Assembly (NCBI GenBank): GCA_031266805.1
Contig: JAISAH010000042.1
Span: 1 to 34,925 of the forward strand
DNA: 34,925 bases
Source of the DNA: Gracilibacteraceae bacterium
Lineage (GTDB): Bacteria > Bacillota > Desulfitobacteriia > Desulfitobacteriales > Syntrophobotulaceae
Reading direction: 5' to 3'
The translations under genes were made by a program, and so were the position numbers. Position 1 is the first letter of the stretch. The number at the start of each line of letters is the position of its first letter. Shown here piece by piece: positions 8,894 to 34,925 of the stretch. Under the pieces are notes generated by a model, which made no database searches, was not told the origin of the DNA, and saw only the letters and a program-made list of their open reading frames with translations.

Positions 8894-8933
8894 TATTTTA
8901 TATTTCTCCTTACCGTAGAAATGAAACCCATAT

Positions 8934-9221
8934 TCAGCGCAGCGGCGCACGCAGCGCGGCCGCGGCTGTTTCGCCTTCTCTCAGCAGCCAATCATAACTG
9001 ATAAGGATCCCGATGTCAGCCATGTTTTTGTTATCACGCAGCCATTGCGGGGTTATTCCGTGCAGAGAGAACTCGCCGACCTCGCCATGCTCGATCCAGT
9101 CGTTGAGCAGCTTCGCCGATTCAGGAAAAAACCGCTCGCTTTTTCTGATGATTTCCGGTATTTGCGCTTCCGGACAGTCGCTTGCGCGCAAACAGGCCTG
9201 TAATTTTTCGCTGTCAATCAT
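8934..9221 (-). CDS. Probable immunity protein for the metallopeptidase toxin
   Basis: A 95-residue protein (start MIDSEKLQACLRASDCPEAQ) that begins two bases after the stop of the metallopeptidase toxin gene. I do not recognise the family. It is helical in the first half, with LHGITPQWLRDNKNM in the middle, and shows no membrane segment. Position, size and coupling point to immunity. I chose ATG 9221, because GGGAGGGG stands just upstream; longer in-frame starts at 9233 and beyond would lie inside that site or the toxin gene. Confidence 0.55.
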   Translation of the reverse strand: MIDSEKLQACLRASDCPEAQIPEIIRKSERFFPESAKLLNDWIEHGEVGEFSLHGITPQWLRDNKNMADIGILISYDWLLREGETAAAALRAPLR

Positions 9222-9222
9222 T

Positions 9223-9915
9223 TTATCCCCTCCCATTGGCTTCAAGCCGAAGCGCCGAAGCTATTCCTTCGCCAAAATGCCGCGCGTCCGCTTCCAGCGG
9301 ATTATAGAAATATCCCTCCGGATCAAAACAGTTGCTGCCTGACGACGCGTAGGTTTCAGTAGCGGAAATCCAAGCGGCAATAACCGAATTGCTGACGACC
9401 CCGCAAATGTTTCCGAGTATGACATCAGTCTGAAACTGGTGCCGCGATTCGTGCGCTATCGCATCGATACCGAGCAGTATCAATTTTGGATCATCCAAAA
9501 GTCCCTTATGCAAGTGGATAACGCCGTCGCCGAGATTATAACCAACCCCGCCGGGTTCAGTGATATCATACCTGACGCCTTTGTTTTTTATGCCGAGTTC
9601 TTTGGCTATATCGCGCTGATAGGCTCCAAATATCTTTTTACGCTCACTGGCGCTGAGTCCGCCCCATTCGGCCTGGATTTTTTCTGTGAAGCGCTTCCTG
9701 ACTATTTCTATACATTTAGCTAATTTATACTCCTTGATGTCGATAGCGTCTGTTGTTTCATTTTTCGATTCCATTGCCGCCAGTCCGAGCGGTTTACCGT
9801 ACTCGCTCGCCGGCTTATCAAAAATCTTGTGTTCAGCCGCTTGGCCGAGAGGGCTTTCGGCAAAACGCTTATTAACGGTGGTCTCGCGGACTTCCTCTTT
9901 ATGAGTAAAATCCAT
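9223..9915 (-). CDS. Toxin: shared leader plus HExxH metallopeptidase domain
   Basis: A 230-residue protein. Residues 1-43 carry the same leader as the HNH toxin (31 of 42 aligned residues identical by my count). The rest looks like a zincin toxin domain: IDAIAHESRHQFQ (HESRH about 153-157) fits HExxH, two zinc ligands and the catalytic Glu, and NPLEADARHFGE (about 206-217) has the downstream acidic residue expected as third ligand. This resembles the Tox-MPTase families of polymorphic toxins. No signal peptide. The ATG at 9915 shares one base with the stop of the HerA-type gene (TAATG) and is preceded by AAGGGGGTGG, so its translation is tied to that of the ATPase. Substrate unknown. Confidence 0.78.
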   Translation of the reverse strand: MDFTHKEEVRETTVNKRFAESPLGQAAEHKIFDKPASEYGKPLGLAAMESKNETTDAIDIKEYKLAKCIEIVRKRFTEKIQAEWGGLSASERKKIFGAYQRDIAKELGIKNKGVRYDITEPGGVGYNLGDGVIHLHKGLLDDPKLILLGIDAIAHESRHQFQTDVILGNICGVVSNSVIAAWISATETYASSGSNCFDPEGYFYNPLEADARHFGEGIASALRLEANGRG

Positions 9916-13307: not shown

Positions 13308-13897
13308 CTTAACCCTCCTTGCGTCGCGACGGCGACGGCGACCCCGCCCACGACGGCGCCCGTTGCCGCGCCTATCGGCACGGCAGCGGCGCTCGCGACA
13401 CACACGGCGATCACCCCTCCGGCGATTGCGCCGGCAGCGGCGCCGACGCCAATTTTAGCGCCGCGATATGATCCGTGCCGCTGGTCATAACGCTTCTGCT
13501 CCTGATAGCTTCTCCCAGGCTCTTCACCCGGCGTATCCAGCCCGGAGCGCTTACCGCCAGGCGGCTTGCCGTCTGGCGGCGCCGTGTTCGCGCGCGCGGG
13601 GTCAACCGGACGCAGATACCTCACCACTTCTTTGAGGTGGTCTAACCGCTCTGGCGAGAAATTGCCAACGACTTGAACCATGAGTTTGTCCATATAATCG
13701 TCGTTCCACTCCGACTTGTCAGACTTGAGTTCGCGTCCGTCGTGCTGATCATACAGACCGGACACAGCGGCGAGACGGCTCATCTCGTCAAACTCGGCGA
13801 ACGTCGGGTCTACGAGCAGACTGTCTTTCATCATAATGTGAATACCCATAACATTGCCCGCCGAAACCGCGTTTCTGAAAGCGTTAGTAACAGCCAT
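13304..13897 (-). CDS. Conserved protein with C-terminal glycine-zipper membrane segment
   Basis: A 197-residue protein of unknown function. Residues 1-100 form a soluble helical domain (VTNAFRNAVSAGNVMGIHIM, DSLLVDPTFAEFDEM, LYDQHDGRE) of a kind I have the impression of seeing in Firmicutes near secretion or toxin genes. A Pro/Gly/charged linker follows (about 101-145). The C-terminal 50 residues (GAAAGAIAGGVIAV and IGAATGAVVGGVAVAV) are two glycine-zipper segments likely to pack in a membrane as helical hairpins. It overlaps the ATPase gene by 4 bases (ATGA) and starts 14 bases after the GTPase stop, with AAGGAGG. The tight coupling suggests a membrane anchor or pore for the HerA-type motor; this is inference. 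Confidence 0.65.
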   Translation of the reverse strand: MAVTNAFRNAVSAGNVMGIHIMMKDSLLVDPTFAEFDEMSRLAAVSGLYDQHDGRELKSDKSEWNDDYMDKLMVQVVGNFSPERLDHLKEVVRYLRPVDPARANTAPPDGKPPGGKRSGLDTPGEEPGRSYQEQKRYDQRHGSYRGAKIGVGAAAGAIAGGVIAVCVASAAAVPIGAATGAVVGGVAVAVATQGGLR

Positions 13898-13911: not shown

Positions 13912-16200
13912 TTAAATTTCAAGTATGGATTCCATTTTGAGCTGAATTTGTTCCAGCCATTCCAGCCTGCGCTCGGATTCTTTAACGCGAATTTCCGCGT
14001 TCTTCTTGTCGGTGGCGCAGTTATTGAGTTCGTCGAGCTTCCCTTTGAGTATAGTGTCAAGCTGCTCGAATTCCTCGTTAAAACGCTCGGCAATATGCTC
14101 TGATTGTTTGAGCGCGTACTTATAAGCAGCATTGCCATTGGCGTACAGTCCTTGCTGAATCGGCTGGAAGAATTCTTGCGCAAATTCACTGCCGCTGATG
14201 TATTGGACAGTTTGATACTTTGTCCGGAAATAGCCTTTCTCTTGGGGCCATGTCCACGGTTTAAACCACCTTTTGTCCGTGTTCCTCATCCATTCCTCGC
14301 CGCTCTCGACTTTTTTCGTTTTTATCAGGTCCCGCGTAGAAAAATTCTCCGAAGTCACACTGCCGCTCATGAATTTCAGCGGGTCAATTTTCACTCCGGT
14401 GATTGCGCCAACGTTAATTTCCTCGGTCAGCGACGCGAGTTTTTGTTTGTAAGCGTCAAGCAAAGCGTTACCGGTGTTCTCAAGCTCGACCCTGATGGCT
14501 GCGTCAAGCGCGATCTCAAATTGGGGTTCGAGAGCCTTGGCGAACTTGCCGAGCTGCCCTGCTTCTTCCTCGGCGGCCTCAACATCAAGTTCCACATCAT
14601 ATTCGTAAATGCGATTGCGGATACGGCCTTGAAATGTTTCAATAATTTTTTCGACTGTCGCTTTGGCACCGTCATTGACCTTGGCGACAGCGCCAGCAAC
14701 CGCGTCTTTGAACTTCGCGGCGTCGCGGATGTCGCCCATCTTCCGGCGTATGCCTGCGATCTGTTCAACGATTTTCGCGTTCTCATCGCGGTTTTTGGCG
14801 ACATCTCGCTTGGTTTCCTCGAAACAGCCGACCTCTTCCAGTCTCTTCATAAACGTGTCCACGATATTCTTGATTTTCGCTGTTTTCGCGTATTTCTGCA
14901 CATACTGCCGTATCGCCGCCTCAATAGACACAACGCCTGTGTGAATCAAGGCGGTATCGGGATTTTCGATATCGTTGCCGTCCCATTTCCGCGCCGCCGC
15001 GCCAAGCTGTTCGCTTATTTCACCGCGTACACTTTTCGGGAGAGAAGCGTGTTTTTCAAAGTGCAAATTCTCGCTGCGGTTTAATTTCCTGATTCTGGTT
15101 TCGGTCTCGTCAATATCTTCTTCATCTATTTCGGCGCAGTTCTTCTTCATAAGCCGGATATTCAGCGCGGGCAGCGCCGCCGCTGGGAACAGGTTCGGAT
15201 TCGCGACTCCGTGGTCTTTAAGGTATGAACGGACACGTTCTAAAGTCTCATTCAAATCACCGTCCTCTTTATTGCGGCCATCCAGTTTGTTGACGACAAA
15301 TATGAATCTATCTTTTGATTGCTTGCCGCCGACCTTCATACTATCGGCGACACGAGCGAGGAGTTTATTGTCGTCGTCGGTCCCAAATTCACTGGTCATG
15401 ATGTAAAGCACCAGAGCCTTTGAAGATTTTGCCAGGAGTTCGCTTTGTACTTTTTCGTGTTGCCGATCACGGGAGTTGTTCGGGCCGGGCGTGTCTATAA
15501 GCACAAGGGAGACGTCTTCTGACATTACGAAGGGTATATTTCCAGCCGCCGCAATAGTTGACACATTTTCATCAGCATTCAGGCGCTCCATCGTCGGACG
15601 CGTCAGATTCTCATACGTTTCGACCAGACGTCCGTCTTTATCATAGACTTCCGCCTTAAAAGGCACATCCTCTCGCGAACAGTCTTTGATCCGCGTAATG
15701 ATGGCTGTACAGGCCTCTTGCTTTGACGGCATGAGTTTTGTGCCGAGCATAGCGTTAATAAGCGTCGATTTTCCCGCGCTCATCGTGGCCACGACACAGA
15801 CTTCAAAGTCGCTGCTTCTGGCGAGTTCAAACGCCTTGATTATCGCTTCGTCCCGCAGTTCTTCAAACGGGCCTCCTTGAACTTCCTGGAAAATTTCGGC
15901 AATAAGACCTTCTTTGTCAGAGGTTTCTTTGGCGGGAATATGGTTCAGTTTGGCGGAGGTCTCGCGGAAAATGCCGGTCAAATCCTCGAAATCAAGTACA
16001 GTCCCGTGGAATGTAATATCAAAGTCGATGTCATTGCATTCTTTTTTGAGAAGCCGCGGAAGTTCCTCCACCCATTCCTGCAAGCGGGAACCGTGGGGCA
16101 TCTTCCTGCCGATCTCACTGTTTTCCTTCAAGCCCTTGCCGTCAATCGTGATCTCGGTTTCAAGTTTATACGGATTATACTTAATGAACACCTTTTTCAT
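13912..16200 (-). CDS. Dynamin-like GTPase, long form
   Basis: A 762-residue protein with a dynamin-type G domain: G1 MSAGKSTLINAMLG near 140-153, G3 DTPGPNNSRD near 233, G4 NKLDGR near 301. Residues 1-100 form a conserved N-terminal part (MKKVFIKYNPYKLETEI). After the G domain come long helices and acidic coiled coil (about 490-640), a Trp-rich patch (RWFKPWTWPQEKGYF, about 665-680) that could touch membranes, and a final helical region ending ERRLEWLEQIQLKMESILEI. Bacterial dynamin-like proteins reshape or fuse membranes, often as pairs from adjacent genes. I chose ATG 16200, with GGAGG eight bases upstream; the open frame reaches further into the upstream paralogue, but that part is a shadow. 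Confidence 0.85.
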   Translation of the reverse strand: MKKVFIKYNPYKLETEITIDGKGLKENSEIGRKMPHGSRLQEWVEELPRLLKKECNDIDFDITFHGTVLDFEDLTGIFRETSAKLNHIPAKETSDKEGLIAEIFQEVQGGPFEELRDEAIIKAFELARSSDFEVCVVATMSAGKSTLINAMLGTKLMPSKQEACTAIITRIKDCSREDVPFKAEVYDKDGRLVETYENLTRPTMERLNADENVSTIAAAGNIPFVMSEDVSLVLIDTPGPNNSRDRQHEKVQSELLAKSSKALVLYIMTSEFGTDDDNKLLARVADSMKVGGKQSKDRFIFVVNKLDGRNKEDGDLNETLERVRSYLKDHGVANPNLFPAAALPALNIRLMKKNCAEIDEEDIDETETRIRKLNRSENLHFEKHASLPKSVRGEISEQLGAAARKWDGNDIENPDTALIHTGVVSIEAAIRQYVQKYAKTAKIKNIVDTFMKRLEEVGCFEETKRDVAKNRDENAKIVEQIAGIRRKMGDIRDAAKFKDAVAGAVAKVNDGAKATVEKIIETFQGRIRNRIYEYDVELDVEAAEEEAGQLGKFAKALEPQFEIALDAAIRVELENTGNALLDAYKQKLASLTEEINVGAITGVKIDPLKFMSGSVTSENFSTRDLIKTKKVESGEEWMRNTDKRWFKPWTWPQEKGYFRTKYQTVQYISGSEFAQEFFQPIQQGLYANGNAAYKYALKQSEHIAERFNEEFEQLDTILKGKLDELNNCATDKKNAEIRVKESERRLEWLEQIQLKMESILEI

Positions 16201-16222
16201 CGTCGGTTCCTCCAAATAGTAT

Positions 16223-17746
16223 TTAAATTTCAAGTATTGATCCCAGTTGAGCCGTAATCGCATCAAGCCATTCCAGTTTATGCTCCAACTCCCTGATATG
16301 TTCCTCATGTTTGTTTTCATTAATTTCGCTCGTGAGTTGATGTTTGATTTTCCCGAAATATCTGGCATCCTCAAGTTTATGCGCAAGTGTATCTACGAGA
16401 TTCTTGATCTTCGCCGGTTTCGCGTATTTTTGCACATACTGCCGTATCGCCGCCTCAATGGACATGACGCCCGTGTGAATCAAAGCGGTATCGGGATTTT
16501 CGATATCTCTGCCATCCCAATTCCACGCCGCCTCATGAAGCTGGGCGTTAATCTCGGCTCGCGCACTAGGCGGAAGCGGAGCGTAATTTTCAAAATGCAA
16601 ATTCTCGCTGCGGTTGAGTTTCCTGATTCTGGTTTCGGTCTCGTCAATATCTTCTTCATCCATTTCAGCGCCGTTCTTCTTCATAAGCCGAATATTCAGC
16701 GCCGGCAGCGCCGCCGCCGGGAACAGGTGAGGGTTCGCGATTCCGTGCGTTTTCAGGTAGGAACGAATATGTTTTAAAATCTCATTCAAATCACCGTCCT
16801 CTTTATTGCGGCCGTCAAGTTTGTTGACGACAAATATGAATCGGTCTTTCGATTGCTTCCCGCCGACCTTCATACTATCGGCGACAACACGAGCGAGGAG
16901 TTTATTGTCGTCGTCGGTCCCGAATTCTGTGGTCATGATGTAAAGCATCAAAGACTTTGAATGTTTACTGAGCAGTTCGCTCTGGATTTTCCTATGATTA
17001 GGATCACGGGAGCTATTCACAGTAGGCGTATCTATAAGCACAAGGGAGACATCTTCCGATGTCACGAAGGGTATATTTCCGGCCGCCCGGATCTCTGACA
17101 CATTTTCATCAGCGTTCAGGCGCTCCATCGTCAGACGCGTCAGATTTTCGTGCACTTCGATCAGACATCTGTCTTTACCATAGACTTCTGCCTTAAAAGG
17201 CATATCCTTTTGCGAACAGTCTTTGATCCGTGTGATGATGGCCGTACAGGCCTCTTGCTTTGTCGGTATGAGTTTTTTGCCGAGCATAGCGTTAATAAGC
17301 GTCGATTTTCCTGCGCTCATCGCACTCACGACACAGACTTCAAAATCGCTGCTCTTGGCATGTTCAAACGCCTTGATTATCATCTCATCCCGCAGTTCAT
17401 CAAACGGGCCGGCCTGGATTTTCCTGAAAACTTCGTCTATCAAGCCTTCCTTGTCAAAGGTTTCTTTGGCGGGTTTATGACAAAATTTGGTGGTCAATTC
17501 ACTGCGTTCCGTCGTCTCGCAGAAAACGCCGGTCAAGTCCTCGTAATCAAGCTTAGTCCCATGGAATGTGATATCAAAATCGATGTCATTGTATTCTTCT
17601 TTAAGAATTTCTGGAAGTTCCTCCACCCATTCCTGTAAGCGAGAACCGTCAGCCCGGAGACGGCTATTTTCCGTCAGTCTCTTACCGTCAACCGTGATCT
17701 CGGTTTCAAGTTTATACGGATTATACTTAATGAACACCTTTTTCAT
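16223..17746 (-). CDS. Dynamin-like GTPase, short paralogue lacking the stalk
   Basis: A 507-residue paralogue of the next gene, nearly identical over the first 460 residues (same MKKVFIKYNPYKLETEI start, MSAGKSTLINAMLG at about 140-153, NKLDGR). Two differences stand out. First, G3 reads DTPTVNSS instead of DTPGPNNS, so the glycine that contacts the gamma-phosphate is lost. Second, the 250-residue helical stalk of the long form is absent: after KNLVDTLAHKLEDARYF only a coiled-coil stub remains, joined in frame to the same end (LEWLDAITAQLGSILEI). It probably arose by tandem duplication followed by internal deletion. It may be a regulatory partner of the long form or the product of decay; the frame is intact and GGAGG precedes ATG 17746. 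Confidence 0.8.
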   Translation of the reverse strand: MKKVFIKYNPYKLETEITVDGKRLTENSRLRADGSRLQEWVEELPEILKEEYNDIDFDITFHGTKLDYEDLTGVFCETTERSELTTKFCHKPAKETFDKEGLIDEVFRKIQAGPFDELRDEMIIKAFEHAKSSDFEVCVVSAMSAGKSTLINAMLGKKLIPTKQEACTAIITRIKDCSQKDMPFKAEVYGKDRCLIEVHENLTRLTMERLNADENVSEIRAAGNIPFVTSEDVSLVLIDTPTVNSSRDPNHRKIQSELLSKHSKSLMLYIMTTEFGTDDDNKLLARVVADSMKVGGKQSKDRFIFVVNKLDGRNKEDGDLNEILKHIRSYLKTHGIANPHLFPAAALPALNIRLMKKNGAEMDEEDIDETETRIRKLNRSENLHFENYAPLPPSARAEINAQLHEAAWNWDGRDIENPDTALIHTGVMSIEAAIRQYVQKYAKPAKIKNLVDTLAHKLEDARYFGKIKHQLTSEINENKHEEHIRELEHKLEWLDAITAQLGSILEI

Positions 17747-19055
17747 CGTCGGTTCCTCCGAACAGTATTTTTTCCAGACCGGACAAGCCGCATTTCCTGC
17801 TCATCAGGGCCGCTTCGTCCTCGCCGCCGCTTGCGTCCGATCCGGCACAGCGGTCAGATAGGTCGTACTCCTCCCTTCTGAATTTTCTGGCGTAATAATC
17901 GCAGGCATCCTGCTCGTCCTCGGACAGCCTGTCCCCGCTCCGTCTCATTTTGACCAGCAGGGCGAAATACGCCGACAGCGGGCATATTACAGGGTTCTCG
18001 TAGCCGAGTCGTAGCAAGTCGCTACGCACCCCCTCCAAACTATCAGTGACAGAATCTTCTGACTTATTGAAGTCGTCAAGCTTGTTCAGCACGAATATGA
18101 CCTTGTCTTTCGGCACATTCTCCGCGACCCAGCGCAGATGGCGGAATTCATCTCCGGCGCCGATTTTGTTCGCGTTGAGGACAAAAATAACCTTGTCGTA
18201 TCTTTCCGCGAGTAAAGCTTCCCGCGTCAGTTCCCCATGATCGCGGTTCACGGCGGAGTTCGCGCCAGGCGTGTCGATGAGGCACAGCCGGTTTTGCGGC
18301 TCGGCGCTTCCGCGGAAGAACGAGGCCACATGGCTGACCTCCGTCCGTATGCCGCCGACGAGTTCATCATAGCCCGCGTCCAAATCAAACGGCGAGGCGC
18401 GCAGATGAACGGCGTTGTCTTCAAACGGCTTGTTATAGATGTAGCACAGATTTGCCGTGCAGACCTCCTGCGACGTTTTGGTCACCGGCTTGCCGACCAG
18501 CGCGTTGATCAGCGTCGACTTCCCCGCGCTCAGACCGGCCGTGACGATAAAACGCTTCTCTGTCTGGATGCCGAACCGCCGGTTGGCCCGGAATTGGTTG
18601 ATCAACTCCTTCGCGAATGAAACAGCCGCGGGAATCTCGCCATCGTTCCACAGAGCGGTGAATAAAGTGTCTAATCGCGCCGTTTCCTTGGGGCGAGGGA
18701 ATTCGCGCAATGAGGCATACGCCTTTTTGATCTCCGCTTCATCCAAAAGGATGAGGGCGATATCGCACAGGAGCCAGCAACTATACTTCCTTTTCCACGG
18801 CCAAATATTGTTCACCAGAGCGCTGATCGCGCGAGACATCTCGCTTTCAAAGAGCCACGCCTGTATGGAACCGCCCGCGAGCAGTTTTTGATACTGAGCA
18901 AGCCGCGCCTCAATATAGTCGGTATTACCCCAGCTCTGCCGCACAAAATATTCAAGCGCCATAAAATAATCCGTTTTCAGTTTTTGCTTGGACGGTTTCA
19001 TCGGGTGCCGCGCCAAGTCCAGCGACGATATAAAATGCCCGATATCGTTATTCAT
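17727..19055 (-). CDS. Dynamin-like GTPase with helical N-terminal domain
   Basis: A 442-residue GTPase that differs from the next two. Residues 1-150 are a helical domain without a motif I recognise. The G domain follows: G1 GLSAGKSTLINALVG near 172-186, G3 LIDTPGANSAVNRDHGE near 257, G4 VLNKLDDFNKSED near 321. G1 and G3 resemble the dynamin-like/Leo group. The C-terminus is short and acidic, with no stalk. It overlaps the next gene by 20 bases and the previous one by 8 (ATGAATAA), so all are translated together. I use ATG 19055; a TTG one codon earlier is less likely. Three adjacent GTPases fit hetero-oligomeric bacterial dynamin systems such as LeoABC, which is linked to toxin release in enterotoxigenic E. 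coli; the parallel is inference. Confidence 0.82.
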   Translation of the reverse strand: MNNDIGHFISSLDLARHPMKPSKQKLKTDYFMALEYFVRQSWGNTDYIEARLAQYQKLLAGGSIQAWLFESEMSRAISALVNNIWPWKRKYSCWLLCDIALILLDEAEIKKAYASLREFPRPKETARLDTLFTALWNDGEIPAAVSFAKELINQFRANRRFGIQTEKRFIVTAGLSAGKSTLINALVGKPVTKTSQEVCTANLCYIYNKPFEDNAVHLRASPFDLDAGYDELVGGIRTEVSHVASFFRGSAEPQNRLCLIDTPGANSAVNRDHGELTREALLAERYDKVIFVLNANKIGAGDEFRHLRWVAENVPKDKVIFVLNKLDDFNKSEDSVTDSLEGVRSDLLRLGYENPVICPLSAYFALLVKMRRSGDRLSEDEQDACDYYARKFRREEYDLSDRCAGSDASGGEDEAALMSRKCGLSGLEKILFGGTDDEKGVH

Positions 19056-19359
19056 CAAAATCCTCGTCGAATGTAATATTATATGTTATTTCATGTTTTT
19101 CGTTTTCCCCGCGAAACAATTCCATCGGATTAGCACCGCCAATCCGCCAGAATACCTTACCCAGAAGTTCCCCCTTAGCGTCAAAGGCCATTCCTCTCAC
19201 CTTGTAATAGCCGCCTTCGTCTCTTCGTTTCAGATCTGCCCGCGTGGCGCCGCCGCGCCCCATCTCATCCATCCAATTCTCAATATCGCGCGGTTTGTCC
19301 ATGACCCTTTCAGCTGTTTTTTCTACTAAACGCTCATGGAATGAATTCAAAAAGCTCAT
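19048..19359 (-). CDS. Small uncharacterised operon protein
   Basis: A 103-residue soluble protein that I do not recognise. The first 60 residues are charged helices (HERLVEKTAERVMDKPRDIENWMDEMGRGG); the rest reads as beta strands (YYKVRGMAFDAKGELLGKVFWRIGG, then KHEITYNITFDEDFDE). The start at 19359 has AGGAGG upstream. It overlaps the GTPase gene. A fragment of a near copy of its 3' end lies at 23650-23710, so the gene, or the operon, has been duplicated in part. Confidence 0.6.
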   Translation of the reverse strand: MSFLNSFHERLVEKTAERVMDKPRDIENWMDEMGRGGATRADLKRRDEGGYYKVRGMAFDAKGELLGKVFWRIGGANPMELFRGENEKHEITYNITFDEDFDE

Positions 19360-19424
19360 ATTTTCCTCCTGTTAATATTAATTAAGCTGTTTATTATGTT
19401 CACAGATTAACATATATTAACAAA

Positions 19425-21833
19425 TTATTTTTTGTTCTTCTGAAACTGCTCCTTGAACTCTGCTTTTAGGACCTCTGCTCCTTCTTTTTTACTCAGGTCG
19501 TTCTGGTTCAGCTTGCCCATTTTAATAGCCTTGCACACTTGAATGTATGCCTTACCAAGAGCAAGCGTAATTAGGCCCGCTGTTGACGCGGAAATAGCGC
19601 CGCCCACGACTGAACCCACACCGGGAATGAACTTTAAAGCGTTAGCAACAACCGTTCTCCCGATAACAGTGGCTCCGCCAACACCAACTGCCGCCGTCGC
19701 GAGCGATTTAAGCGTATCCCTGCTCACGTTGAACTGGAAAACCGAATTGATAGCAATCATCATAGCTACTTCTTCACCTATGAGCAGCGGCGCGTCAGCG
19801 AACGGGATGGGAATTGCTCCTGTCGCTCCTGTAGCGGCGACAAAGCCTAACACAACATTATCCGCTTTTTTTAGCATTTCCTTATACTCAAAATCTTGCA
19901 TCTCGACAGATTGCGCATAATCTTTAACATGATTAAAATAAGTATCGCCTGTATTGGATAACTCTACAATAAGATTTACATTCTTTGTGAAATTTTTTGG
20001 AGTTTCGCGAATACCAGTTGTATATCCTCTAAGTGGAATGCATTCATCGAACTCACAGTTTCTTACAGCGACAAATTCTTGTTCTTTGTTTGCTTCTTTA
20101 CCTGCGATACAACCAATGATTGATCCGTTTGTCGTGCAATTATTGAATTTGCAGGAAACAACAGTGGACTTTCCGGTGTTTTTTGACTTTATAACGACGG
20201 TAATTAAGTTGTCAGTTTGTCTATTTCCACAAACCCACGACTCCATCATTGTAGACACCTTAGGATCATATAAATCTACTGTTTCATTATTTACACAATC
20301 TGTAAATATACAATTAGTGACGTTCATCTGCTCTGCATGGATAGCGCACCCGGAACAAGATTCAAACTTCGAATTTTTAACAGTAAAATTTGAAGGCTCT
20401 ACGAAGCCGCCTATGCCGCATAGCCCGATCGTCTTTATAAACGTTGTACCGGTAATCTCCGCTATCGAAGCCCTTAAAAAGCTGTAATGTTCACGTTCTC
20501 TATTCTTGCCGATATATCCCGATAATATATTTTCAAAATGACACTGTACAATCTCGAGCTTATATAACTGCGATATTTCAATATCTATATCTCTAAAGAA
20601 AGTATTGAAGAGCGATAACTCCCCGTAATTTTTAAAACAGAACAAATATTCATTCCAGCTTCTGCCTGCTGATAAACATTCGGATATTTTTGAGCCATTA
20701 ATTTCCATTTTATTTGCTGAGATCGAAAACTTGCCCTTATGGGCAACAATTTGGCAGTTTTTTAGCGATAAATCAGCCTTGAAAATTATGCCAATGCAGT
20801 TTTTGAATTTACAATTACTAACATTTATGGTTTCGTCAGAGGATTTAATCACACAGCGCTCGTCGGAATGTCTGCTGTCTAAAACTGATGTGCATTCAGC
20901 AAACGTACAGTCGTTCAAATCAATAGAAGTGCTTTCGGCAGCCAGACAAGCCTCTCGGCAAACTCGCTCAGTCACAAAAACGCACTTGTTGAAATGAAGT
21001 TTGCTGTCTTTCACGGTCGCCGCGACGGGAAACTCAGAGTTGAAAGTGATCACGCAATTATTGAAAATAATATCCGCGTCTGTGATAGACAACATTTTGC
21101 TTATTTCAATTTTGCAGTCTGTAAAAGCATATTTTCCGGATGTTGCGGCATAAATATCTCTCGATTCCGCATATTGCGCGTCTAAATCATTGCTTTCGTT
21201 GATTTTTTCTTCCAGCTCGAACAAGGAAGGTGTTTGAATCCCGCCTATCACCAGCAATCCATATTTATCAGGCAATTTATCGTATACTGATTGGACTTGA
21301 TCGTTTATCTCACGAAGCCGCTTATTAGAAATTTCCGCATGTTCAAGCAGATGGTCCACCTTTTCTTTAATAATCGAATCATTGCCTGAAATAGCAACAA
21401 CATCGAATAAGAATTTTGCCAGGATTGCTGTCTCTTCCGGCACAAGGTTTGAAATTAGATTCAGGTCTACTTCCGCCTGTGGCAACACCCCTAACCGCGC
21501 AATAATACTCTGGATGTATTCATTGTATAACTCACGCGCAGATTCGTCATAAATGCGCAAAAGCGCTGTTGCGATGACTGTTCTGTTTTCTGGGGAAATA
21601 TTTAAGATTTGATTGAAATCAAGAGGCTTAAATCCATATTCTTGCAATTTCAAGCGCTTATCATCAGTGTCGATGTAGTCCATCAGCGCTTCATTTATGG
21701 CGCCTTGCGTCTCAGTGTTCCTAATAAGTAGAACTTCACTAGCGCCCTTTACCTCTGCGCCAACCATGTTTAATACCTTTTCAGCCACTTGTCCTGTAGC
21801 TTCTGCTCCTTTAATATAATTCTCGTTTGCCAT
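19425..21833 (-). CDS. Beta-helix protein fused to a DUF697 membrane domain
   Basis: An 802-residue protein of three parts. Residues 1-215 are helical. About 225-600 hold short repeats with the rhythm of a right-handed parallel beta-helix (for example VSNCKFKNCIGI, LSLKNCQIVAHK, VTNCIFTDCVNN), where an Asn-Cys ladder recurs roughly every 20-25 residues. About 655-775 is a DUF697-type domain with Gly/Ala hydrophobic segments (VVLGFVAATGATGAIPIPFADAP, FIPGVGSVVGGAISASTAG). DUF697 is normally joined to GTPase domains and places them at the membrane; here the GTPases are separate genes just downstream. No signal peptide, so the helix would sit in the cytoplasm. Base composition is lower in GC than in the flanks. 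The function of this combination is unknown to me. Confidence 0.75.
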   Translation of the reverse strand: MANENYIKGAEATGQVAEKVLNMVGAEVKGASEVLLIRNTETQGAINEALMDYIDTDDKRLKLQEYGFKPLDFNQILNISPENRTVIATALLRIYDESARELYNEYIQSIIARLGVLPQAEVDLNLISNLVPEETAILAKFLFDVVAISGNDSIIKEKVDHLLEHAEISNKRLREINDQVQSVYDKLPDKYGLLVIGGIQTPSLFELEEKINESNDLDAQYAESRDIYAATSGKYAFTDCKIEISKMLSITDADIIFNNCVITFNSEFPVAATVKDSKLHFNKCVFVTERVCREACLAAESTSIDLNDCTFAECTSVLDSRHSDERCVIKSSDETINVSNCKFKNCIGIIFKADLSLKNCQIVAHKGKFSISANKMEINGSKISECLSAGRSWNEYLFCFKNYGELSLFNTFFRDIDIEISQLYKLEIVQCHFENILSGYIGKNREREHYSFLRASIAEITGTTFIKTIGLCGIGGFVEPSNFTVKNSKFESCSGCAIHAEQMNVTNCIFTDCVNNETVDLYDPKVSTMMESWVCGNRQTDNLITVVIKSKNTGKSTVVSCKFNNCTTNGSIIGCIAGKEANKEQEFVAVRNCEFDECIPLRGYTTGIRETPKNFTKNVNLIVELSNTGDTYFNHVKDYAQSVEMQDFEYKEMLKKADNVVLGFVAATGATGAIPIPFADAPLLIGEEVAMMIAINSVFQFNVSRDTLKSLATAAVGVGGATVIGRTVVANALKFIPGVGSVVGGAISASTAGLITLALGKAYIQVCKAIKMGKLNQNDLSKKEGAEVLKAEFKEQFQKNKK

Positions 21834-21857
21834 CTAAGAAAACCTCCTGTTCATTAA

Positions 21858-23129
21858 TTAGTTAGTGGAATAAAGCCAATTGAAGTCTGTACTGAGAACC
21901 TTCTCTGCAAATCTTTCTTTCAAGTACTCTTGTTTTATCTCCCGAATAAATTTGGTATCAGAAACAAGCCTGTGAATTGTTGCGATAAAACCGCCTATAT
22001 CAAAGCGTTTGGCGGCTTCGGCCGGATTCTTGGCAGCGATGGCAATCCCAGTTGCAACAAGTATGTTGGACGCGCTTGAAATACAATTTGCCGTCAATAA
22101 TATTTTCCTCGTTCGCACCTGATAGAGCCGGATGTCGCCGTCTTTTTCTTCATCATACATCAACATATGGATAGCCTTGATGATTTCGTTGATCAGCAAA
22201 CTGACTGCGAATTGAATACCCACTATGGCAAAGTCTTTCCCTAAGGCCCCAGTGACCTTTTTTATTGCCTTTTCTGCTTCATCGGAATTCCATCCCTTTT
22301 CTATCAATTCTTGAGCTTTTTCCGCGCTTAGAAAAGGAATCGGCAATCCTGTTTTGCCTGTTTTATCTGAGTAAAGGTGAATTCCCTCTCTGGCTACCGC
22401 AGCAGGCAGTCGTTTGATATCCGCTTTAAAGGCTTTCCATGCGACGAAAAAAGCTTCGCCTATACTGCTGCGCCCATATATCCGGTTGCCTTTTTCTGTC
22501 ACGGTAAATGTTTCTAGTCCCGGGGATTTATAGGTTAATGTGCGGGTCATTATGTTTATCGGCCCAAATAAATACCCTAAAATCGGGTCATGCCCCAAAG
22601 TATACGCATGATGATTCAAACCGCTCAATTGCTGCAAATGGCCGGGGATCGGAAATTCCTTGGGCGCAAAGGCGTCATAGGGAACAGGGCGAGTAAGAAT
22701 TTGGAAAACGGTTCTATAACCTTCATCGGTATAGATGTCTTTATCTTTTTCGATTGTTTTCTTAATTTTATCAAGTTCTTCTTTGCTTTTTTTATCTTCT
22801 ATGCTCTTCCCTTCTTTGTCTGCTATTCTACTCTCGTTTGAGGGCTCGTGCTTGAAATCAAAATCAAGAGGTGCAATTTTCCCCATGATAAGCCATTTAG
22901 CGCACAATAATCCAATTGCGACAAAAAGAAAAGTCAAATCTTTTGAGTAAGTTATGCCTGTAGCTTTAGAAAATTCCGCATCTAAATCAGCCATAATTTC
23001 TCCGGCGCGACCAAAATGTTCGCCAATACGAAAACACTCATCACCCAGTTTATCGAGGTGTTTGATTGTTTCGCGATTATCAGCAATGAGCTTCGAATTT
23101 AGTTCGCGTAATTTGTCTGTTCTTCTCAT
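21858..23129 (-). CDS. Membrane protein of unknown family
   Basis: A 423-residue protein. A coiled-coil N-terminus (1-60) is followed by one hydrophobic segment (LTFLFVAIGLLCAKWLIMG, about 64-82), a Lys/Glu-rich stretch (about 95-130), a conserved-looking centre (LSGLNHHAYTLGHDPILGYLFG, about 170-192), and two more hydrophobic segments near 299-319 and 342-365. The His-rich LNHHAYTLGHD motif seems functional, possibly a metal site, but I know no enzyme with it. The gene is 24 bases upstream of the beta-helix gene. ATG 23129 has AAAGG upstream. It should be an integral membrane part of the system. Confidence 0.65.
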   Translation of the reverse strand: MRRTDKLRELNSKLIADNRETIKHLDKLGDECFRIGEHFGRAGEIMADLDAEFSKATGITYSKDLTFLFVAIGLLCAKWLIMGKIAPLDFDFKHEPSNESRIADKEGKSIEDKKSKEELDKIKKTIEKDKDIYTDEGYRTVFQILTRPVPYDAFAPKEFPIPGHLQQLSGLNHHAYTLGHDPILGYLFGPINIMTRTLTYKSPGLETFTVTEKGNRIYGRSSIGEAFFVAWKAFKADIKRLPAAVAREGIHLYSDKTGKTGLPIPFLSAEKAQELIEKGWNSDEAEKAIKKVTGALGKDFAIVGIQFAVSLLINEIIKAIHMLMYDEEKDGDIRLYQVRTRKILLTANCISSASNILVATGIAIAAKNPAEAAKRFDIGGFIATIHRLVSDTKFIREIKQEYLKERFAEKVLSTDFNWLYSTN

Positions 23130-23257: not shown

Positions 23258-23283
23258 GCAAAATCACCTCGGCGAGGTATTTT

Positions 23284-23312
23284 TGGATTCTGGGACAAGC
23301 CCAGAATGACGG
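23284..23312. repeat. Dispersed palindromic repeat
   Basis: Palindrome ATTCTGGGACAAGCCCAGAAT (23287-23307) with TGG and GACGGG flanks, a variant of the element at 9956 and 34066. It lies in the gap between two minus-strand genes, next to a 13-base palindrome ACCTCGGCGAGGT (23266-23278). Confidence 0.8.
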
Positions 23313-23355
23313 GAGTCAAAAAGCGACATCAGTTAAACAGTACTCATCCTTCAAA

Positions 23356-24715: not shown

Positions 24716-24752
24716 CGGCGGCGTCCTCCTTGGCTATGAGTGATCGGCGCAA

Positions 24753-24778
24753 GTCTCAAAAGGTAGACCTTTTGAGAC
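24753..24778. repeat. Perfect palindrome, candidate operator
   Basis: Arms GTCTCAAAAGGT and ACCTTTTGAGAC around AG. No T-run follows on either strand, so it is not a normal terminator. The same palindrome with longer arms recurs at 24906. It lies in the upstream region of the WYL regulator and is suited to bind a dimer. Confidence 0.75.
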
Positions 24779-24905: not shown

Positions 24906-24940
24906 AAACTCTCAAAAGGTCTACCTTTTGAGAGTTTTTT
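24906..24940 (+). terminator. Rho-independent terminator-like hairpin
   Basis: Arms AAACTCTCAAAAGGT and ACCTTTTGAGAGTTT (24906-24937) around CT, followed by TTTTTT overlapping 24935-24940. Placed right after the promoter above, it would give an RNA of only about 40 bases. No plus-strand gene ends here. Confidence 0.65.
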
Positions 24941-26246: not shown

Positions 26247-26794
26247 TTACAGGATTTGGAGCATTTGCCCGAGCCGCTCTTTGGTATATTCAGCGACCAT
26301 TTCAACCATAGGAAAAGGGTCGTTATCACGATAATAGCTGTCAAAGCAAGCGTAATACCGTTTTCTGTCCGCAAATTTCACATTAACGGACGGGTATCCC
26401 GCCTGCATGAGCATGAGGTTCAAAAGCAGCCTGCCCGTGCGCCCGTTGCCGTCGATAAAGGGGTGGAGTGAATGCCCTGGATGACCCGGTCGGAAATCGG
26501 CGTTTTTTCGCTGACAAGTTCGGCGACGTAGAGGAAAGCGTCCCGATGCCCGACCGCTTCCAAATGGTCTTTGAGCGGTTTTTGGTCAATGGTCACGCCT
26601 TCTAGGACCAGCGCGGTTTCTTTGAGCGTGAGCGTGTTTCCCTCGATCGCGTTTGAATTATAGGTGAACTCAACGAGAAACTCATCCCGCAAGCGTTGGA
26701 GTTCCCCTGACGTGAGCGGGCGGCGGCGGTCAAGCTCGGCTTTTATCGCGTCCACGGACGAAAAAAGAGACGCGCAGAGAAGCATGTAGTCCAT
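26247..26794 (-). pseudogene. Fic family gene broken by an internal deletion
   Basis: The first part (start ATG 26794 with GAGGT upstream) matches class II Fic proteins and includes the inhibitory motif SNAIEGN near residues 45-51. After RVIQGIHS the frame is lost. In another frame the gene resumes exactly at the catalytic motif HPFIDGNGRTGR and runs to a normal end (LLLNLMLMQAGYPSV...ERLGQMLQIL, stop at 26247-26249). About 40 residues between GIH and HPF are missing, which suggests a deletion between two similar GGCATTCAC stretches. The product would be inactive. It differs from the intact Fic at 6092, so it is a separate gene and not a recent copy. Confidence 0.85.
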
Positions 26795-26832
26795 CGACTG
26801 CACCTCGCTTTCCTATAAAGTGGTCTGAAAAC

Positions 26833-26868
26833 TCAGGCGGATTTTATGTCGCCAGTCAGTTCCTGCGT
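26833..26868 (-). pseudogene. Scar of a second dnaA 3' end
   Basis: The bases resemble those at 27351-27387, the 3' end of the LRR-DnaA gene (CTCAGG.G.ATTTTAT.TCG.CAGTCAGTTCCTGC). Read on the minus strand they give QELTGDIKSA and a stop, against QELTAEIKFT in the full gene. It suggests that another dnaA-like gene once ended here or that the end was copied. Confidence 0.6.
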
Positions 26869-27336: not shown

Positions 27337-27347
27337 AAACTCCGGAC

Positions 27348-29240
27348 TCAGGTGAATTTTATCTCGGCAGTCAGTTCCTGCAACATTTTCTCCAGCGCGG
27401 CGTCCTTTTCTTTCATCTCCCTGATCTTGTTGACGGCGTGGATCACGGTGGAATGATCCCGGCCGCCAAAGGCCTCGCCGATCTGCGGCAGCGAGAGCTC
27501 GGTCAAATCCCGGCACAGATACATAGCGATCTGGCGCGGCAGAGGGGTGAGTGATGAACGTTTGTTCTGTCTCAGATCGTCAGGCGTGAGACTGTAACGC
27601 CCGGCCACCGCGTTCATGATGGTTTCCGCCGTCACCGGCTGGTCCTGCGGCATCAGATCCCGCAAGACCCGGCGCGCCATCTCCAGCTCCGGTTTCTCCC
27701 CGGTAAAGGAGCAATAGGCGGCGAGCTTGTTGAGCGCCCCTTCCAGATCCCGCACGCTGCCGCGGATGGAGGAAGCGATGAGATCAAGAACGTCGTCTGG
27801 GACGGCGCTGCCGCCCTGCCGCGTTTTCGCGCGTAAAACAGCCATGCGCGTCTCGTAGTCAGGCGGAGCGATATAAACGGTCAGCCCGCCCTCGAAGCGG
27901 GAGCGCAGCCTTTCGGCCAATCGGGGAATGTCGCTGGGCCGCATATCGGAGGAAATGATTATCTGTTTGCCGGCTTCATACAATGCGTTGAGCGTGTAAA
28001 AAAATTCCATCTGCGTGGCTTCTCTGCCTGCCAAAAACTGGATATTGTCGATCAGCAGCATATCAAGTTTGCGGTAAGTATCACGGAAGGCCGCCTGTTT
28101 TTCATGACGGATGGAGTCGATCATTTCGTTGGTGAACTGTTCGGCGGTGGTGCAGACGGTCTTAAAATGAGGCCGAGTCTGGGATATTTTGTGGGCGACG
28201 GCGTGCATGAGATGGGTTTTGCCGAGACCGTTGCCGCCATAGATGAAAAGAGGGTTGCAGGCTTCAGCCGAGCATTCGGCCACGGCCAGAGCGGCGGCGT
28301 AGGCGAAGCGGTTGCCTTCCCCGACGATGAAGTTTTGGAAGGTATATTTCGCAAACGCGCTCTCCCCGGTGCTTATCACACCGGCCGATACAGCAATTTC
28401 CGTCAAACGGTCGCAGCCCAAAAACGCGCGATTGCTGATACTCGTCACGCTATCCGGAATGACAACCGTTTCCAAGTCGTAACAATCCTCAAACGCGCCG
28501 TCTCCTATACTCGTCAGACTATCCGGCAATACAACGTTTATTAGATTCCCCGCTCCGTCCGCAGTGCTGGCATTTCTGAGAGTGCCGCATCCGGCGAACA
28601 CATCGTCTCCGATGCGCGTCACGCCGGGCGGGACGACGTACAGGGAAGCTTTTCTCGACTGAGGGTAAAAAAGCAGTGTTTTCATATTCTTGGTAAACAG
28701 TACCCCGTCCCGAGTGGTATAACAGGCGCTGCCCTCCGCCACGACTATTTTCCGCAGATATCTGGCGTCAAACGCCCGGGTTCCGATACTTGTCACGCCA
28801 GCCGGAATGACAATTTCTGTTAAATCGCGGCAGTTCCAAAACGCGCTGTCCCCTATGCTCGTCACACTGTTCGGAATGCTTATGTTTGCCATTTTTTCAC
28901 AGCCAAAAAACGCGCAATCCCCAATGCTTTTCACAGTGCTGGGAATGTCGATCTTTTTGAGATTCACGCAATGAGCGAATGCGTTCTTCCCTATGCTTGT
29001 CAGGGGGGCGGAGATGGAAATGTTTGTCAAGCTGTGGCAGTGAAAAAACGCGCTGTCCCCGATATGCGTTACGCTGGCCGGAACATCGATATTTGTGAGA
29101 TTTTCGCAGCAGAAAAACGCGCCGTCCCCGATACTCGTCACGCTGCCGGGAATAGTGATGCTTTCCAGCGTTTCACAATTCGCAAAAGCGCCATCCGCAA
29201 TCTTTGTCACTCCGTCCCTGACGGTCGCCTTTTCCTCCAT
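27348..29240 (-). CDS. LRR_5 repeat domain fused to DnaA domains III and IV
   Basis: A 630-residue fusion. Residues 5-297 are BspA-type LRR_5 repeats (SITIPGSVTSIGDGAFFCC and similar) with one DGVLFTKNMKTLLFYP insert. From residue 298 (KYTFQNFIVGEGNRF) the protein is a standard DnaA: Walker A GGNGLGKTHLMHA near 333-345, Walker B LLIDNIQFLAG near 391-401, RLRSRFEGGL with the arginine finger region, and the domain IV signature GRDHSTVIHA near 593-602. All residues of the AAA+ and DNA-binding domains look intact, so it may still bind ATP and DnaA boxes. Domain I, which loads DnaB helicase, and domain II are replaced by repeats. ATG 29240 follows GAGGTGAGG, 17 bases after the stop of the LRR gene. 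No dnaN neighbour. Confidence 0.9.
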   Translation of the reverse strand: MEEKATVRDGVTKIADGAFANCETLESITIPGSVTSIGDGAFFCCENLTNIDVPASVTHIGDSAFFHCHSLTNISISAPLTSIGKNAFAHCVNLKKIDIPSTVKSIGDCAFFGCEKMANISIPNSVTSIGDSAFWNCRDLTEIVIPAGVTSIGTRAFDARYLRKIVVAEGSACYTTRDGVLFTKNMKTLLFYPQSRKASLYVVPPGVTRIGDDVFAGCGTLRNASTADGAGNLINVVLPDSLTSIGDGAFEDCYDLETVVIPDSVTSISNRAFLGCDRLTEIAVSAGVISTGESAFAKYTFQNFIVGEGNRFAYAAALAVAECSAEACNPLFIYGGNGLGKTHLMHAVAHKISQTRPHFKTVCTTAEQFTNEMIDSIRHEKQAAFRDTYRKLDMLLIDNIQFLAGREATQMEFFYTLNALYEAGKQIIISSDMRPSDIPRLAERLRSRFEGGLTVYIAPPDYETRMAVLRAKTRQGGSAVPDDVLDLIASSIRGSVRDLEGALNKLAAYCSFTGEKPELEMARRVLRDLMPQDQPVTAETIMNAVAGRYSLTPDDLRQNKRSSLTPLPRQIAMYLCRDLTELSLPQIGEAFGGRDHSTVIHAVNKIREMKEKDAALEKMLQELTAEIKFT

Positions 29241-29256
29241 GATCCTCACCTCTGTT

Positions 29257-30960
29257 TCAGATTCCCAGGACGGCCTCAAATTTGATCCCTTTATCCCGCG
29301 CGTACTCAGCGGCGCAGGAATTCTCTCCGGCGCGGATCGTCAGGTCGAACCAGGCAAACATGTCGCCCTCGATAATCGTCACGCTGTCCGGGACGGCGAC
29401 GCCGGTCAGATTTCTATGGTCACGGAAGGCGCTGCCTTTGATCCGCGTCACGCCGGTCGGGATGGCGTAGGAGGATCCTTCCTTGGCCGGAGGGTAATAA
29501 ACCAGCGTTTTCATATCATCGGTAAAAAGTACCCCGTCCCGAGAGGCATAATTTTCGCTGTTTTCGTCCGCGATGATGTGCGCCAGATTCTCACACCAGA
29601 AAAACGCGCCCTCGCCGATGCTTGCCACGCTCTCCGGGATCCTATAAACTGCCGTTTCTTTCGCCGGCGGGTAGCAGACCAGCGTTTTCATATCCCTCGT
29701 AAAAAGCACTCCGTCTTGGGCGGCATAAACAGTGTTCTCCTCCGCCACGCTTATTTCTCGCAGCCGCTCGGCGCCCATAAACGCGCCGCCGACAGCCGTC
29801 ACGCTGCGGGGAACGGCAATATGCAGCAGGTTTTTTGAGCCGCGAAACGCTCTGTCCTTGATCCGCTTCACGCCGGTCGGAATGGCGTAGACGGAGCCTT
29901 CTTTAGCCGGAGGATAGAAGATCAGCGTTTTCATATCTCTGGAAAAAAGTACCCCATCCAGAACGACGTAATTATTGCCGTCTTCCGCCGTGCTTATTTC
30001 CAGCAGCCGCCCGGCGTTCATAAACGCATGCTCCGCGATATGCTCCGGGCCTCCAGAGATAGTGAGGCTTGGCAGATTTGCGCATTCAATGAACGCATAA
30101 TCCCCGACCACCGTCACGCTGCCCGCGACGGTGACATCCGTCCACCCTTCAAACGCGCTCTTCTTGATTTTTGTCACGTTATGGACGACAATATTCGCCA
30201 ACCTTAAACAGCAGGAAAACGCCTCGCTGCCAATATTTGTCACACTGCGGGGCACGGCGACGCCCGCCAGACTCTCACAGCGGGCAAACGCGCGCTCCCC
30301 GATACTCGTCACGCCGTCCGGGATAGTGATACTCATCAGTTTTACGCACCCGTCAAACGTTCCATCCTCGATTGCCGTCACGCCCTCCGGGATAACGATA
30401 TCCGTCAGCTGGAAACAGCAGGAAAACGCGCCGTTACCGATGCTCGTCACGCTGTGGGGAATGGTAATATTTACAAGGCGGAGACAGCAGGAAAACGCCT
30501 CGCTGCCAATACTCGTCAAACCGCCCGGCATGTCGATATCCGTCAGCTTGTCACAGCACACAAACGCTCGGTTCCCGATGCTCGTCACGCTATACGGGAC
30601 AGTAACACTCGCCAGTGCGCCGCAGGCGGAAAACGCTCCGGCGCCGATAGCCGTCACGCCGCTGGGAATGGTGTACGCAGATTCTTTTCTCTGCGGAGGA
30701 TACCAAACCAGCGTTTTCATATCCGCGGTAAAGAGTACTCCGTCCTTGACCGTGTAATTTTCATTTTTTCTCGCCACGGTTATTTTTTGCAGCTGCCAGA
30801 CGCAGTCAAACGCGCCGCCTTCGATCTTCGTCACGCTGCGGGGAATTTCGTAGGCGGACCCTTTTTTATCCCCGGGATACCAAACCAGCGTTTTCATATC
30901 ATCGGTAAAAACTACGCCGTCCCTGACAATCATCTTTTCCTCGGCGCCCTCTGTGTCCAT
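29257..30960 (-). CDS. BspA-type LRR_5 protein, no signal peptide
   Basis: A 567-residue protein of leucine-rich repeats of the LRR_5 type (for example SITIPDGVTSIGERAFARC), broken at intervals by inserts DGVLFTxDMKTLVWYPP with YAIPxGVTxI after them. The last 30 residues (LTIRAGENSCAAEYARDKGI) are the usual cap of BspA proteins. BspA proteins are normally exported and bind host or microbial surfaces, but this one begins with MDTEGAEEKMIVRDGV and has no signal peptide or anchor, so it is probably cytoplasmic. It forms an operon with the LRR-DnaA gene and is led by promoter element copy 2. ATG 30960 follows GAGGT. A partner of the fusion protein is likely. Confidence 0.85.
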   Translation of the reverse strand: MDTEGAEEKMIVRDGVVFTDDMKTLVWYPGDKKGSAYEIPRSVTKIEGGAFDCVWQLQKITVARKNENYTVKDGVLFTADMKTLVWYPPQRKESAYTIPSGVTAIGAGAFSACGALASVTVPYSVTSIGNRAFVCCDKLTDIDMPGGLTSIGSEAFSCCLRLVNITIPHSVTSIGNGAFSCCFQLTDIVIPEGVTAIEDGTFDGCVKLMSITIPDGVTSIGERAFARCESLAGVAVPRSVTNIGSEAFSCCLRLANIVVHNVTKIKKSAFEGWTDVTVAGSVTVVGDYAFIECANLPSLTISGGPEHIAEHAFMNAGRLLEISTAEDGNNYVVLDGVLFSRDMKTLIFYPPAKEGSVYAIPTGVKRIKDRAFRGSKNLLHIAVPRSVTAVGGAFMGAERLREISVAEENTVYAAQDGVLFTRDMKTLVCYPPAKETAVYRIPESVASIGEGAFFWCENLAHIIADENSENYASRDGVLFTDDMKTLVYYPPAKEGSSYAIPTGVTRIKGSAFRDHRNLTGVAVPDSVTIIEGDMFAWFDLTIRAGENSCAAEYARDKGIKFEAVLGI

Positions 30961-34147: not shown

Positions 34148-34546
34148 TTAGAAGTCCTCAATGCTCGTCACACTATCCGGAATGGTGATCATTGCCAAAT
34201 TTTCGCAGCGACGAATCGCCCCGGATTGGATACGCGCCACAGTGGATAAAATCTGCGTTTTCTGGAAAGATAGAAAAGAACTCTTGATTTCCCCATTCCC
34301 GCCCTCGGTAATAGCATCGGCAATCGTGCCGCTGTCCATCGGCGTAGCGGCATTGGTCTTGTTTATGCATTTTGCCAACGCCGTAAATTCGCCGGCGAGG
34401 GCGTTGTACTGCGAGAGCAGTTCGGCAAAGCTCTCAGCGGGTTTCTCGCCCTCCTGAACCTTAATGTTGTTCTGCATCCTCGTCTTTAACTGGCTCAGTT
34501 TGGTTTGAGCGTCTGCTCGCTGGATAAGAGCTTCTGCGAGTTTCAT
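34148..34546 (-). CDS. DIP1984 N-terminus joined to an LRR_5 fragment
   Basis: A 132-residue chimera. Residues 1-75 (MKLAEALIQRADAQTKLSQL..., NIKVQEGEKPAES, INKTNAATPMDSGTIADAI) are the conserved start of the DIP1984 family, normally about 150 residues and of unknown function. The family's second half is missing; a novel stretch (about 76-98) leads into RIQSGAIRRCENLAMITIPD, a leucine-rich repeat nearly identical to the one at 34817-34912. The LRR cap is deleted and translation ends at EDF. ATG 34546 has GGAGG seven bases upstream and overlaps a leader peptide. It may be a decayed gene or a real fusion product. Confidence 0.75.
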   Translation of the reverse strand: MKLAEALIQRADAQTKLSQLKTRMQNNIKVQEGEKPAESFAELLSQYNALAGEFTALAKCINKTNAATPMDSGTIADAITEGGNGEIKSSFLSFQKTQILSTVARIQSGAIRRCENLAMITIPDSVTSIEDF

Positions 34547-34711: not shown

Positions 34712-34925
34712 TCAGATTCCCGGAACGGCTTTAAATTTTAATCTAATTCTATGCTTCCTCGCGTATCCGGCGGCGTAAGAACCCTCTCCGGCGTGGATCG
34801 TCAGGTCAAAATACTGAAACGAGAAGTCCGCAATGCTCGTCACACTATCCGGAATGGTAATCATTACCAAATTTTCGCAGCGACGAATCGCCCCGGATTG
34901 GATACGCGTCACGCCGTCCGGAATG
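34712..34925 (-). CDS. C-terminal end of a BspA-type LRR_5 protein (partial)
   Basis: The frame is open to the window edge (IPDGVTRIQSGAIRRCENL...), so the start lies beyond 34925. It shows two LRR_5 units and the BspA cap (LTIHAGEGSYAAGYARKHRI). Bases 34824-34910 are nearly the same as 34152-34240 in the chimera, so one was copied from the other. Only the last 70 residues can be seen. Confidence 0.8.
   Translation of the reverse strand, partial: IPDGVTRIQSGAIRRCENLVMITIPDSVTSIADFSFQYFDLTIHAGEGSYAAGYARKHRIRLKFKAVPGI

What the first reader, a model, noticed from the sequence alone, without database searches (positions are those of the whole stretch)
27348..29240. DnaA whose N-terminal domains are replaced by leucine-rich repeats
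A BspA-type LRR_5 array runs in frame into a complete DnaA domain III-IV at residue 298, with Walker A, Walker B and the DHSTV signature intact. Domain I, needed to load helicase, is gone. If expressed, it could compete for origin sites, act as a regulator, or be a replication switch. If it is the only dnaA of the genome it would be extraordinary.
Basis: partly seen in the sequence, partly recalled or inferred. Interest (0 to 1): 0.93.

Follow-up and report, generated by a model that had tools for sequence, protein, structure and literature searches.

The report
Leucine-rich-repeat / DnaA chimera gene
A gut-type Firmicute genome carries, besides its normal DnaA replication starter, a second diverged DnaA whose helicase-recruiting front half is replaced by leucine-rich repeats; its DNA-reading part is unchanged, so it may bind replication-control sites without being able to start replication.

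Summary
A 630-aa reading frame (ATG 29240, stop 27348, minus strand) runs from a BspA-type LRR_5 array (1-297) straight into DnaA domains III-IV (298-630), and the junction sits exactly at the domain II/III boundary. It is not the genome's only dnaA: a normal 435-aa dnaA lies beside dnaN on another contig. The chimera is a diverged duplicate of it (80% aa, dS about 0.5) and was not found in any other genome searched. One stated detail is wrong: Walker B is not intact. Its second Asp, present in 71 of 71 aligned relatives, is Asn. Selection is uneven: 65 of 333 residues changed, yet a 52-residue block covering the DNA-binding helix-turn-helix has no changes, and all five residues matching the B. 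subtilis DnaA-trio contacts are kept. There are no stops or indels. Best reading: an accidental fusion in a rearranging LRR gene cluster, kept as a cytosolic DnaA-box-binding protein that probably cannot recruit helicase or hydrolyse ATP well, hence a competitor or regulator of normal DnaA. Main rival: a chimera on its way to decay, since the neighbourhood is full of gene debris and only one draft assembly shows it.

The parts
27348..29240 (-). LRR_5-DnaA chimera gene, 630 aa (ATG at 29240; TTG at 29279 possible)
29244..29252 (-). Shine-Dalgarno-like GAGGTGAGG upstream of the ATG; the ATG is 16 nt from the stop of the upstream LRR gene (operon-like)
   Evidence: sequence
28350..29240 (-). BspA-type LRR_5 array, residues 1-297, no visible signal peptide; solenoid, pLDDT about 79-87 for residues 1-140
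28349..28350 (-). junction: residue A297/K298, at the DnaA domain II/III boundary
   Evidence: alignment to C91, G001 and G003 DnaA; no near-identical copy of the junction elsewhere in the genome
27642..28349 (-). DnaA domain III (AAA+), residues 298-533; 52 fusion-branch aa changes in 236 codons
28068..28142 (-). region of the initiator-specific motif, residues 367-391, no changes; N371, I374, I377, R386 (and E412 outside this stretch) match the B. subtilis DnaA-trio contacts N187, I190, I193, R202, E228
28044..28061 (-). Walker B MLLIDN (394-399): D to N at the position that is D in 71/71 relatives (B. subtilis D215)
27351..27641 (-). DnaA domain IV, residues 534-630
27387..27542 (-). 52-residue block 567-618 (HTH and DnaA signature RDHSTVIHA) without any aa change but with 7 synonymous codon changes
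   Evidence: omega 0.0
29257..30960 (-). upstream LRR_5 gene, 567 aa, same orientation; its C-terminal end is 88% identical to G001:C189
26831..26866 (-). 36-nt remnant of a second DnaA-paralogue 3' end (QELTGDIKSA*), 89% identical to 27346-27381

Best explanation
A copy of dnaA was made around the time the species split from its closest sampled relative (G001), and codons for domains III-IV ended up in frame behind the LRR array of one gene in an LRR cluster, replacing that gene's C-terminal end. SHOWN: intact frame, plausible ribosome-binding site, diverged duplicate, unchanged DNA-binding HTH, kept ssDNA-contact residues and arginine-finger-type residues, Walker B D399N, a normal dnaA elsewhere. 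INFERRED: the product is cytosolic, still recognises DnaA boxes and can join DnaA assemblies, hydrolyses ATP poorly, and cannot recruit helicase because domain I is gone. It would therefore act as a competitor or brake (or DnaA-box transcription regulator) against normal DnaA, with the LRR solenoid as a protein-binding surface.
For: 65/333 aa changed on the fusion branch, but 0 in residues 567-618 despite 7 synonymous changes (permutation p=0.0003; neutral simulation expects 13 changes, none of 3000 runs gave zero). Omega on the fusion branch 0.25-0.41 against 0.04-0.06 background; omega=1 rejected with 2dlnL 37-46 for the (C91,fusion) topology. No stops (P about 0.05 under neutrality) and no indels in 333 codons; substitutions more conservative than neutral (mean BLOSUM +0.37 against -0.46). 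83/92 highly conserved DnaA columns kept. The junction is exactly at the start of domain III. Literature: domains I/II are not needed for strand separation or unwinding (PMC5742627; PMC10201431), whereas domain I recruits helicase directly or via DnaD (PMC10201431).
Against: Known from one assembly. Domain III changes (52) are close to the neutral expectation (about 60). With the fusion outside C91+G001, omega=1 is not rejected in the six-taxon model (2dlnL 2.1), although it is in the four-taxon model (11.6); the two topologies cannot be separated. Part of the constraint may date from before the fusion. The 52-residue block was chosen after seeing the data. The neighbourhood is decayed. No expression data. 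No DnaA-box enrichment in the window.
Confidence: 0.48

Rival explanations
1. Non-functional chimera: a by-product of illegitimate recombination in a rearranging LRR cluster, still open by chance and residual constraint, on the way to becoming a pseudogene.
For: Fusion-branch omega is 4-11 times the background; domain III near-neutral in number of changes; Walker B lost. Debris nearby: a 36-nt remnant of another dnaA 3' end, a frameshifted/deleted Fic gene, and a second LRR chimera (DUF6847-LRR, 34148-34546) made from a 91-nt copy that is 96% identical to the adjacent LRR gene. Unique to one genome.
Against: No stop or indel in 630 codons; HTH block invariant while synonymous sites moved; conservative substitutions; own ribosome-binding site; junction at a domain boundary.
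Confidence: 0.38
2. Assembly or binning artefact: an LRR gene of this genome joined to the dnaA of another organism.
For: Draft assembly (152 contigs, 1.46% contamination), LRR repeats break contigs, the DnaA part matches no other sequenced copy closely, and reads were not available.
Against: No near-identical copy of the junction exists in the genome (LRR side at most 71%, DnaA side 82% identity), so a repeat-driven false join is unlikely. The DnaA part is not followed by dnaN. Genus-specific dispersed repeats also lie on C42, and C42 differs from G001 by about the same amount (91% nt over the shared locus) as C91 does (94% nt in dnaA).
Confidence: 0.07
3. Alternative initiator: the LRR array replaces domain I and recruits helicase or a loader, giving a second route to start replication of the chromosome or of a mobile element (the contig also has a ParM-like actin, an integrase fragment and a HerA/TrwB-like gene).
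For: DnaA III-IV keeps the ssDNA-contact residues and the HTH block; mobile-type genes on the contig.
Against: No origin-like DnaA-box cluster in the window, no dnaN or loader seen nearby, relaxed AAA+ domain, catalytic-position Asp lost, and the LRR resembles ordinary LRR genes of the same genome.
Confidence: 0.05

Closest known systems
Chromosomal DnaA (TIGR00362; here the C91 copy)
   Same: Domains III and IV, Walker A, sensor 1 Asp, box VII/arginine-finger arginines, sensor 2 Arg, identical HTH and signature
   Different: No domain I or II; 297 residues of LRR_5 instead; Walker B D to N; not beside dnaN; fast-evolving AAA+ domain
BspA-type LRR_5 proteins
   Same: Tandem AFxxCxxLxxIxIPxxVTxIG repeats; solenoid matching 4gt6/4h09
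   Different: Most of the genome's about 20 LRR_5 genes look secreted; this one has no visible signal peptide and ends in DnaA
DnaA-like paralogues, e.g. DnaA-like proteins of Rickettsia felis plasmid pRF (PMC1800911); Hda
   Same: Extra DnaA-related proteins beside the main initiator; Hda also lacks domain I
   Different: Hda has no domain IV and is far more diverged; the passages read on the plasmid proteins mention no LRR fusion

Membership tests
DnaA (chromosomal replication initiator) | AAA+ domain III with Walker A/B | tested here: inconclusive
   Pfam Bac_DnaA 205 bits; Walker A kept, Walker B second Asp is Asn
DnaA (chromosomal replication initiator) | Domain IV HTH with DnaA signature | tested here: met
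   Bac_DnaA_C 98 bits; 52 residues identical to the normal copy
DnaA (chromosomal replication initiator) | Domain I (helicase/DnaD recruitment) | tested here: not met
   Only profile positions 105-437 of TIGR00362 match; residues 1-297 are LRR_5
DnaA (chromosomal replication initiator) | Location beside dnaN/oriC | tested here: not met
   The dnaA-dnaN pair is on C91; no dnaN next to 27348
DnaA (chromosomal replication initiator) | Binds DnaA boxes and ATP, initiates replication | not testable with these tools
   needs protein
BspA-type LRR_5 protein | LRR_5 repeats | tested here: met
   240.9 bits against a cut-off of 27.7; fold match 4gt6
BspA-type LRR_5 protein | Exported/cell-surface protein | tested here: inconclusive
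   No hydrophobic N-terminal segment by eye (MEEKATVRDGV...); no signal-peptide program was run
Hda (DnaA inactivator) | Hda-type AAA+ without domain IV | tested here: not met
   TIGR03420 88 bits against a cut-off of 194.8; domain IV present

The most novel reading that the evidence does not exclude
A functional, naturally evolved DnaA antagonist or DnaA-box regulator: a duplicated initiator stripped of its helicase-recruiting domain, with a Walker B change expected to slow ATP hydrolysis, and given an LRR protein-binding arm that could link replication control to another signal.
Probability: 0.3. Interest if true: 0.85.

Novelty: new variant of a known kind. Interest (0 to 1): 0.58.

Why it matters
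DnaA is among the most conserved bacterial proteins and its four-domain layout rarely changes. A diverged paralogue that keeps the DNA-binding residues exactly, loses domain I and the Walker B second Asp, and carries an LRR array is what a natural dominant-negative initiator or DnaA-box regulator would look like. If functional it would be a new way to control replication. If not, it is a clear example of LRR arrays capturing pieces of housekeeping genes.

Tried and rejected
Only dnaA of the genome: rejected. Same fusion in relatives: not found with a junction probe in family, order, class (83 genomes) or an even sample of 398 genomes of the phylum, nor in viral contigs. Syntenic locus in the sister species G001 found, but its contig ends about 60 codons into the corresponding LRR gene. 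G001:C261, another LRR contig, shows no synteny downstream of its LRR gene, so it is not evidently the continuation. DnaA-box enrichment near the gene: 7 near-matches against 5.2 expected, nothing. Region downstream of the fusion in relatives: only dispersed short repeats and weak short matches. Literature search for an LRR-DnaA fusion: nothing relevant. The protein tree puts the fusion with C91 (99/80) on a long branch, but nucleotide sites split 24:27 between C91 and G001, so the exact order of duplication and speciation is unresolved. The AlphaFold model has low confidence at the junction and in the last LRR turns, so the domain arrangement is not interpreted. The first six-taxon codon fit was repeated with several starts and gave the same likelihood.

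Full report
WHAT IS THERE. On the minus strand, 29240 to 27348, lies one uninterrupted frame of 630 codons. A Shine-Dalgarno-like GAGGTGAGG stands just before the ATG, and the ATG is 16 nt after the stop of another LRR gene (29257-30960). Residues 1-297 are a BspA-type LRR_5 array and residues 298-630 are DnaA domains III-IV. The change-over falls exactly where domain III begins in every aligned DnaA. The predicted model shows the LRR solenoid, the AAA+ domain and a confident domain IV, with an unreliable linker. Foldseek matches B. subtilis DnaA (8btg), solved LRR_5 proteins (4gt6, 4h09) and DnaA-box-bound domain IV (1j1v, TM 0.93 over the target).

THE GENOME. The window is contig C42 of a 3.38-Mb draft assembly (152 contigs, 95% complete). 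A normal 435-aa dnaA sits directly before dnaN on C91. The chimera is therefore an extra copy.

AGE AND SELECTION. The DnaA part is 80% identical in protein and 83% in DNA to the C91 copy; dS is about 0.5, against 0.25 between the C91 and G001 dnaA genes. Of 61 sites that differ between C91 and G001, the chimera agrees with C91 at 24 and with G001 at 27, so the duplication is about as old as that species split; the order is unresolved. Omega on the chimera branch is 0.25-0.41 against 0.04-0.06 elsewhere. Neutrality is rejected if the chimera groups with C91 (2dlnL 37-46). If it lies outside, neutrality is rejected with four taxa (11.6) but not with six (2.1). The pattern of changes is more telling: 65 of 333 residues changed, yet residues 567-618, the HTH and DnaA signature, have none although seven codons changed silently. 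A second unchanged stretch, 367-391, lies in the initiator-specific-motif region. Using the alignment to 8btg, the five residues reported to capture DnaA-trio bases in B. subtilis (N187, I190, I193, R202, E228; PMC10721633) correspond to N371, I374, I377, R386 and E412, all kept. Domain III otherwise changed at close to a neutral rate.

THE WALKER B CHANGE. It reads LLIDN; the second acidic position is Asp in all 71 aligned relatives. In AAA+ proteins this position (hhhhDE) normally carries the residue that activates water; Asp to Asn there is expected to slow hydrolysis while leaving ATP binding possible (general knowledge of AAA+ proteins, not tested here). Walker A Lys, the sensor 1 Asp, both arginines of RLRSR and the sensor 2 Arg are present.

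HOW IT MOST LIKELY WORKS. DnaA lacking domains I and II can still open origin DNA in vitro (PMC5742627; PMC10201431), but domain I recruits helicase directly or through DnaD (PMC10201431). A protein with this make-up would be expected to occupy DnaA boxes and enter DnaA assemblies without delivering helicase: a brake, competitor or transcription regulator. The LRR may bind a partner. Everything in this paragraph beyond the cited facts is inference.

THE NEIGHBOURHOOD ARGUES FOR CAUTION. Just downstream is a 36-nt remnant of another dnaA-like 3' end, then a Fic gene with an internal deletion and frameshift. At 34148-34546 a DUF6847 gene has been cut and joined to a 91-nt LRR piece that is 96% identical to the adjacent LRR gene. 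So the LRR cluster readily makes chimeras. In G001 the same locus exists (ATPase gene, LRR gene 1 shortened, start of LRR gene 2), but the contig ends inside gene 2. No other genome searched has the fusion.

ARTEFACT CHECK. No near-identical copy of the junction exists in the genome, and the contig shares genus-specific dispersed repeats with the rest of the assembly. Misassembly is unlikely but cannot be excluded without reads.

VERDICT. A real and unusual gene: a new variant of DnaA paralogue. Function is plausible but unproven.

Noticed in passing
window 34148-34546 (-): DUF6847 gene cut short and joined to an LRR fragment; the 91-nt LRR piece is 96% identical to about 34822-34912, a second LRR chimera on this contig.
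   Followed up: partly
window 26831-26866 (-): 36-nt remnant of a second DnaA-paralogue 3' end ahead of the Fic gene, suggesting an old tandem duplication with deletion.
   Followed up: partly
window 26280-26803 (-): Fic-family gene with internal deletion and frameshift (HPFIDGNGRTGR in another frame): a pseudogene.
   Followed up: partly
window 13912-23129 (-): Three adjacent dynamin-family GTPase genes followed by a DUF697 gene, with a HerA-like ATPase (9915-13403) and a WHH/colicin-type nuclease (8306-8950) nearby: possibly a defence or conflict island.
   Followed up: no
window 3631-3717, 9946-9986, 23280-23316: Short dispersed repeats (like GGATTCTGGGACAAGCCCAGAATGACGGG) present on many contigs of this genome and of G001.
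   Followed up: no
window 24751-24777 and 24907-24936: Palindromic CTCAAAAGGTAGACCTTTTGAG elements repeated here and on other contigs of the genome and of G001.
   Followed up: no
L164 (G001:C189) 5655-5966: The ortholog of the upstream LRR gene is only 103 aa against 567 aa here, showing very rapid gain or loss of LRR units between sister species.
   Followed up: partly
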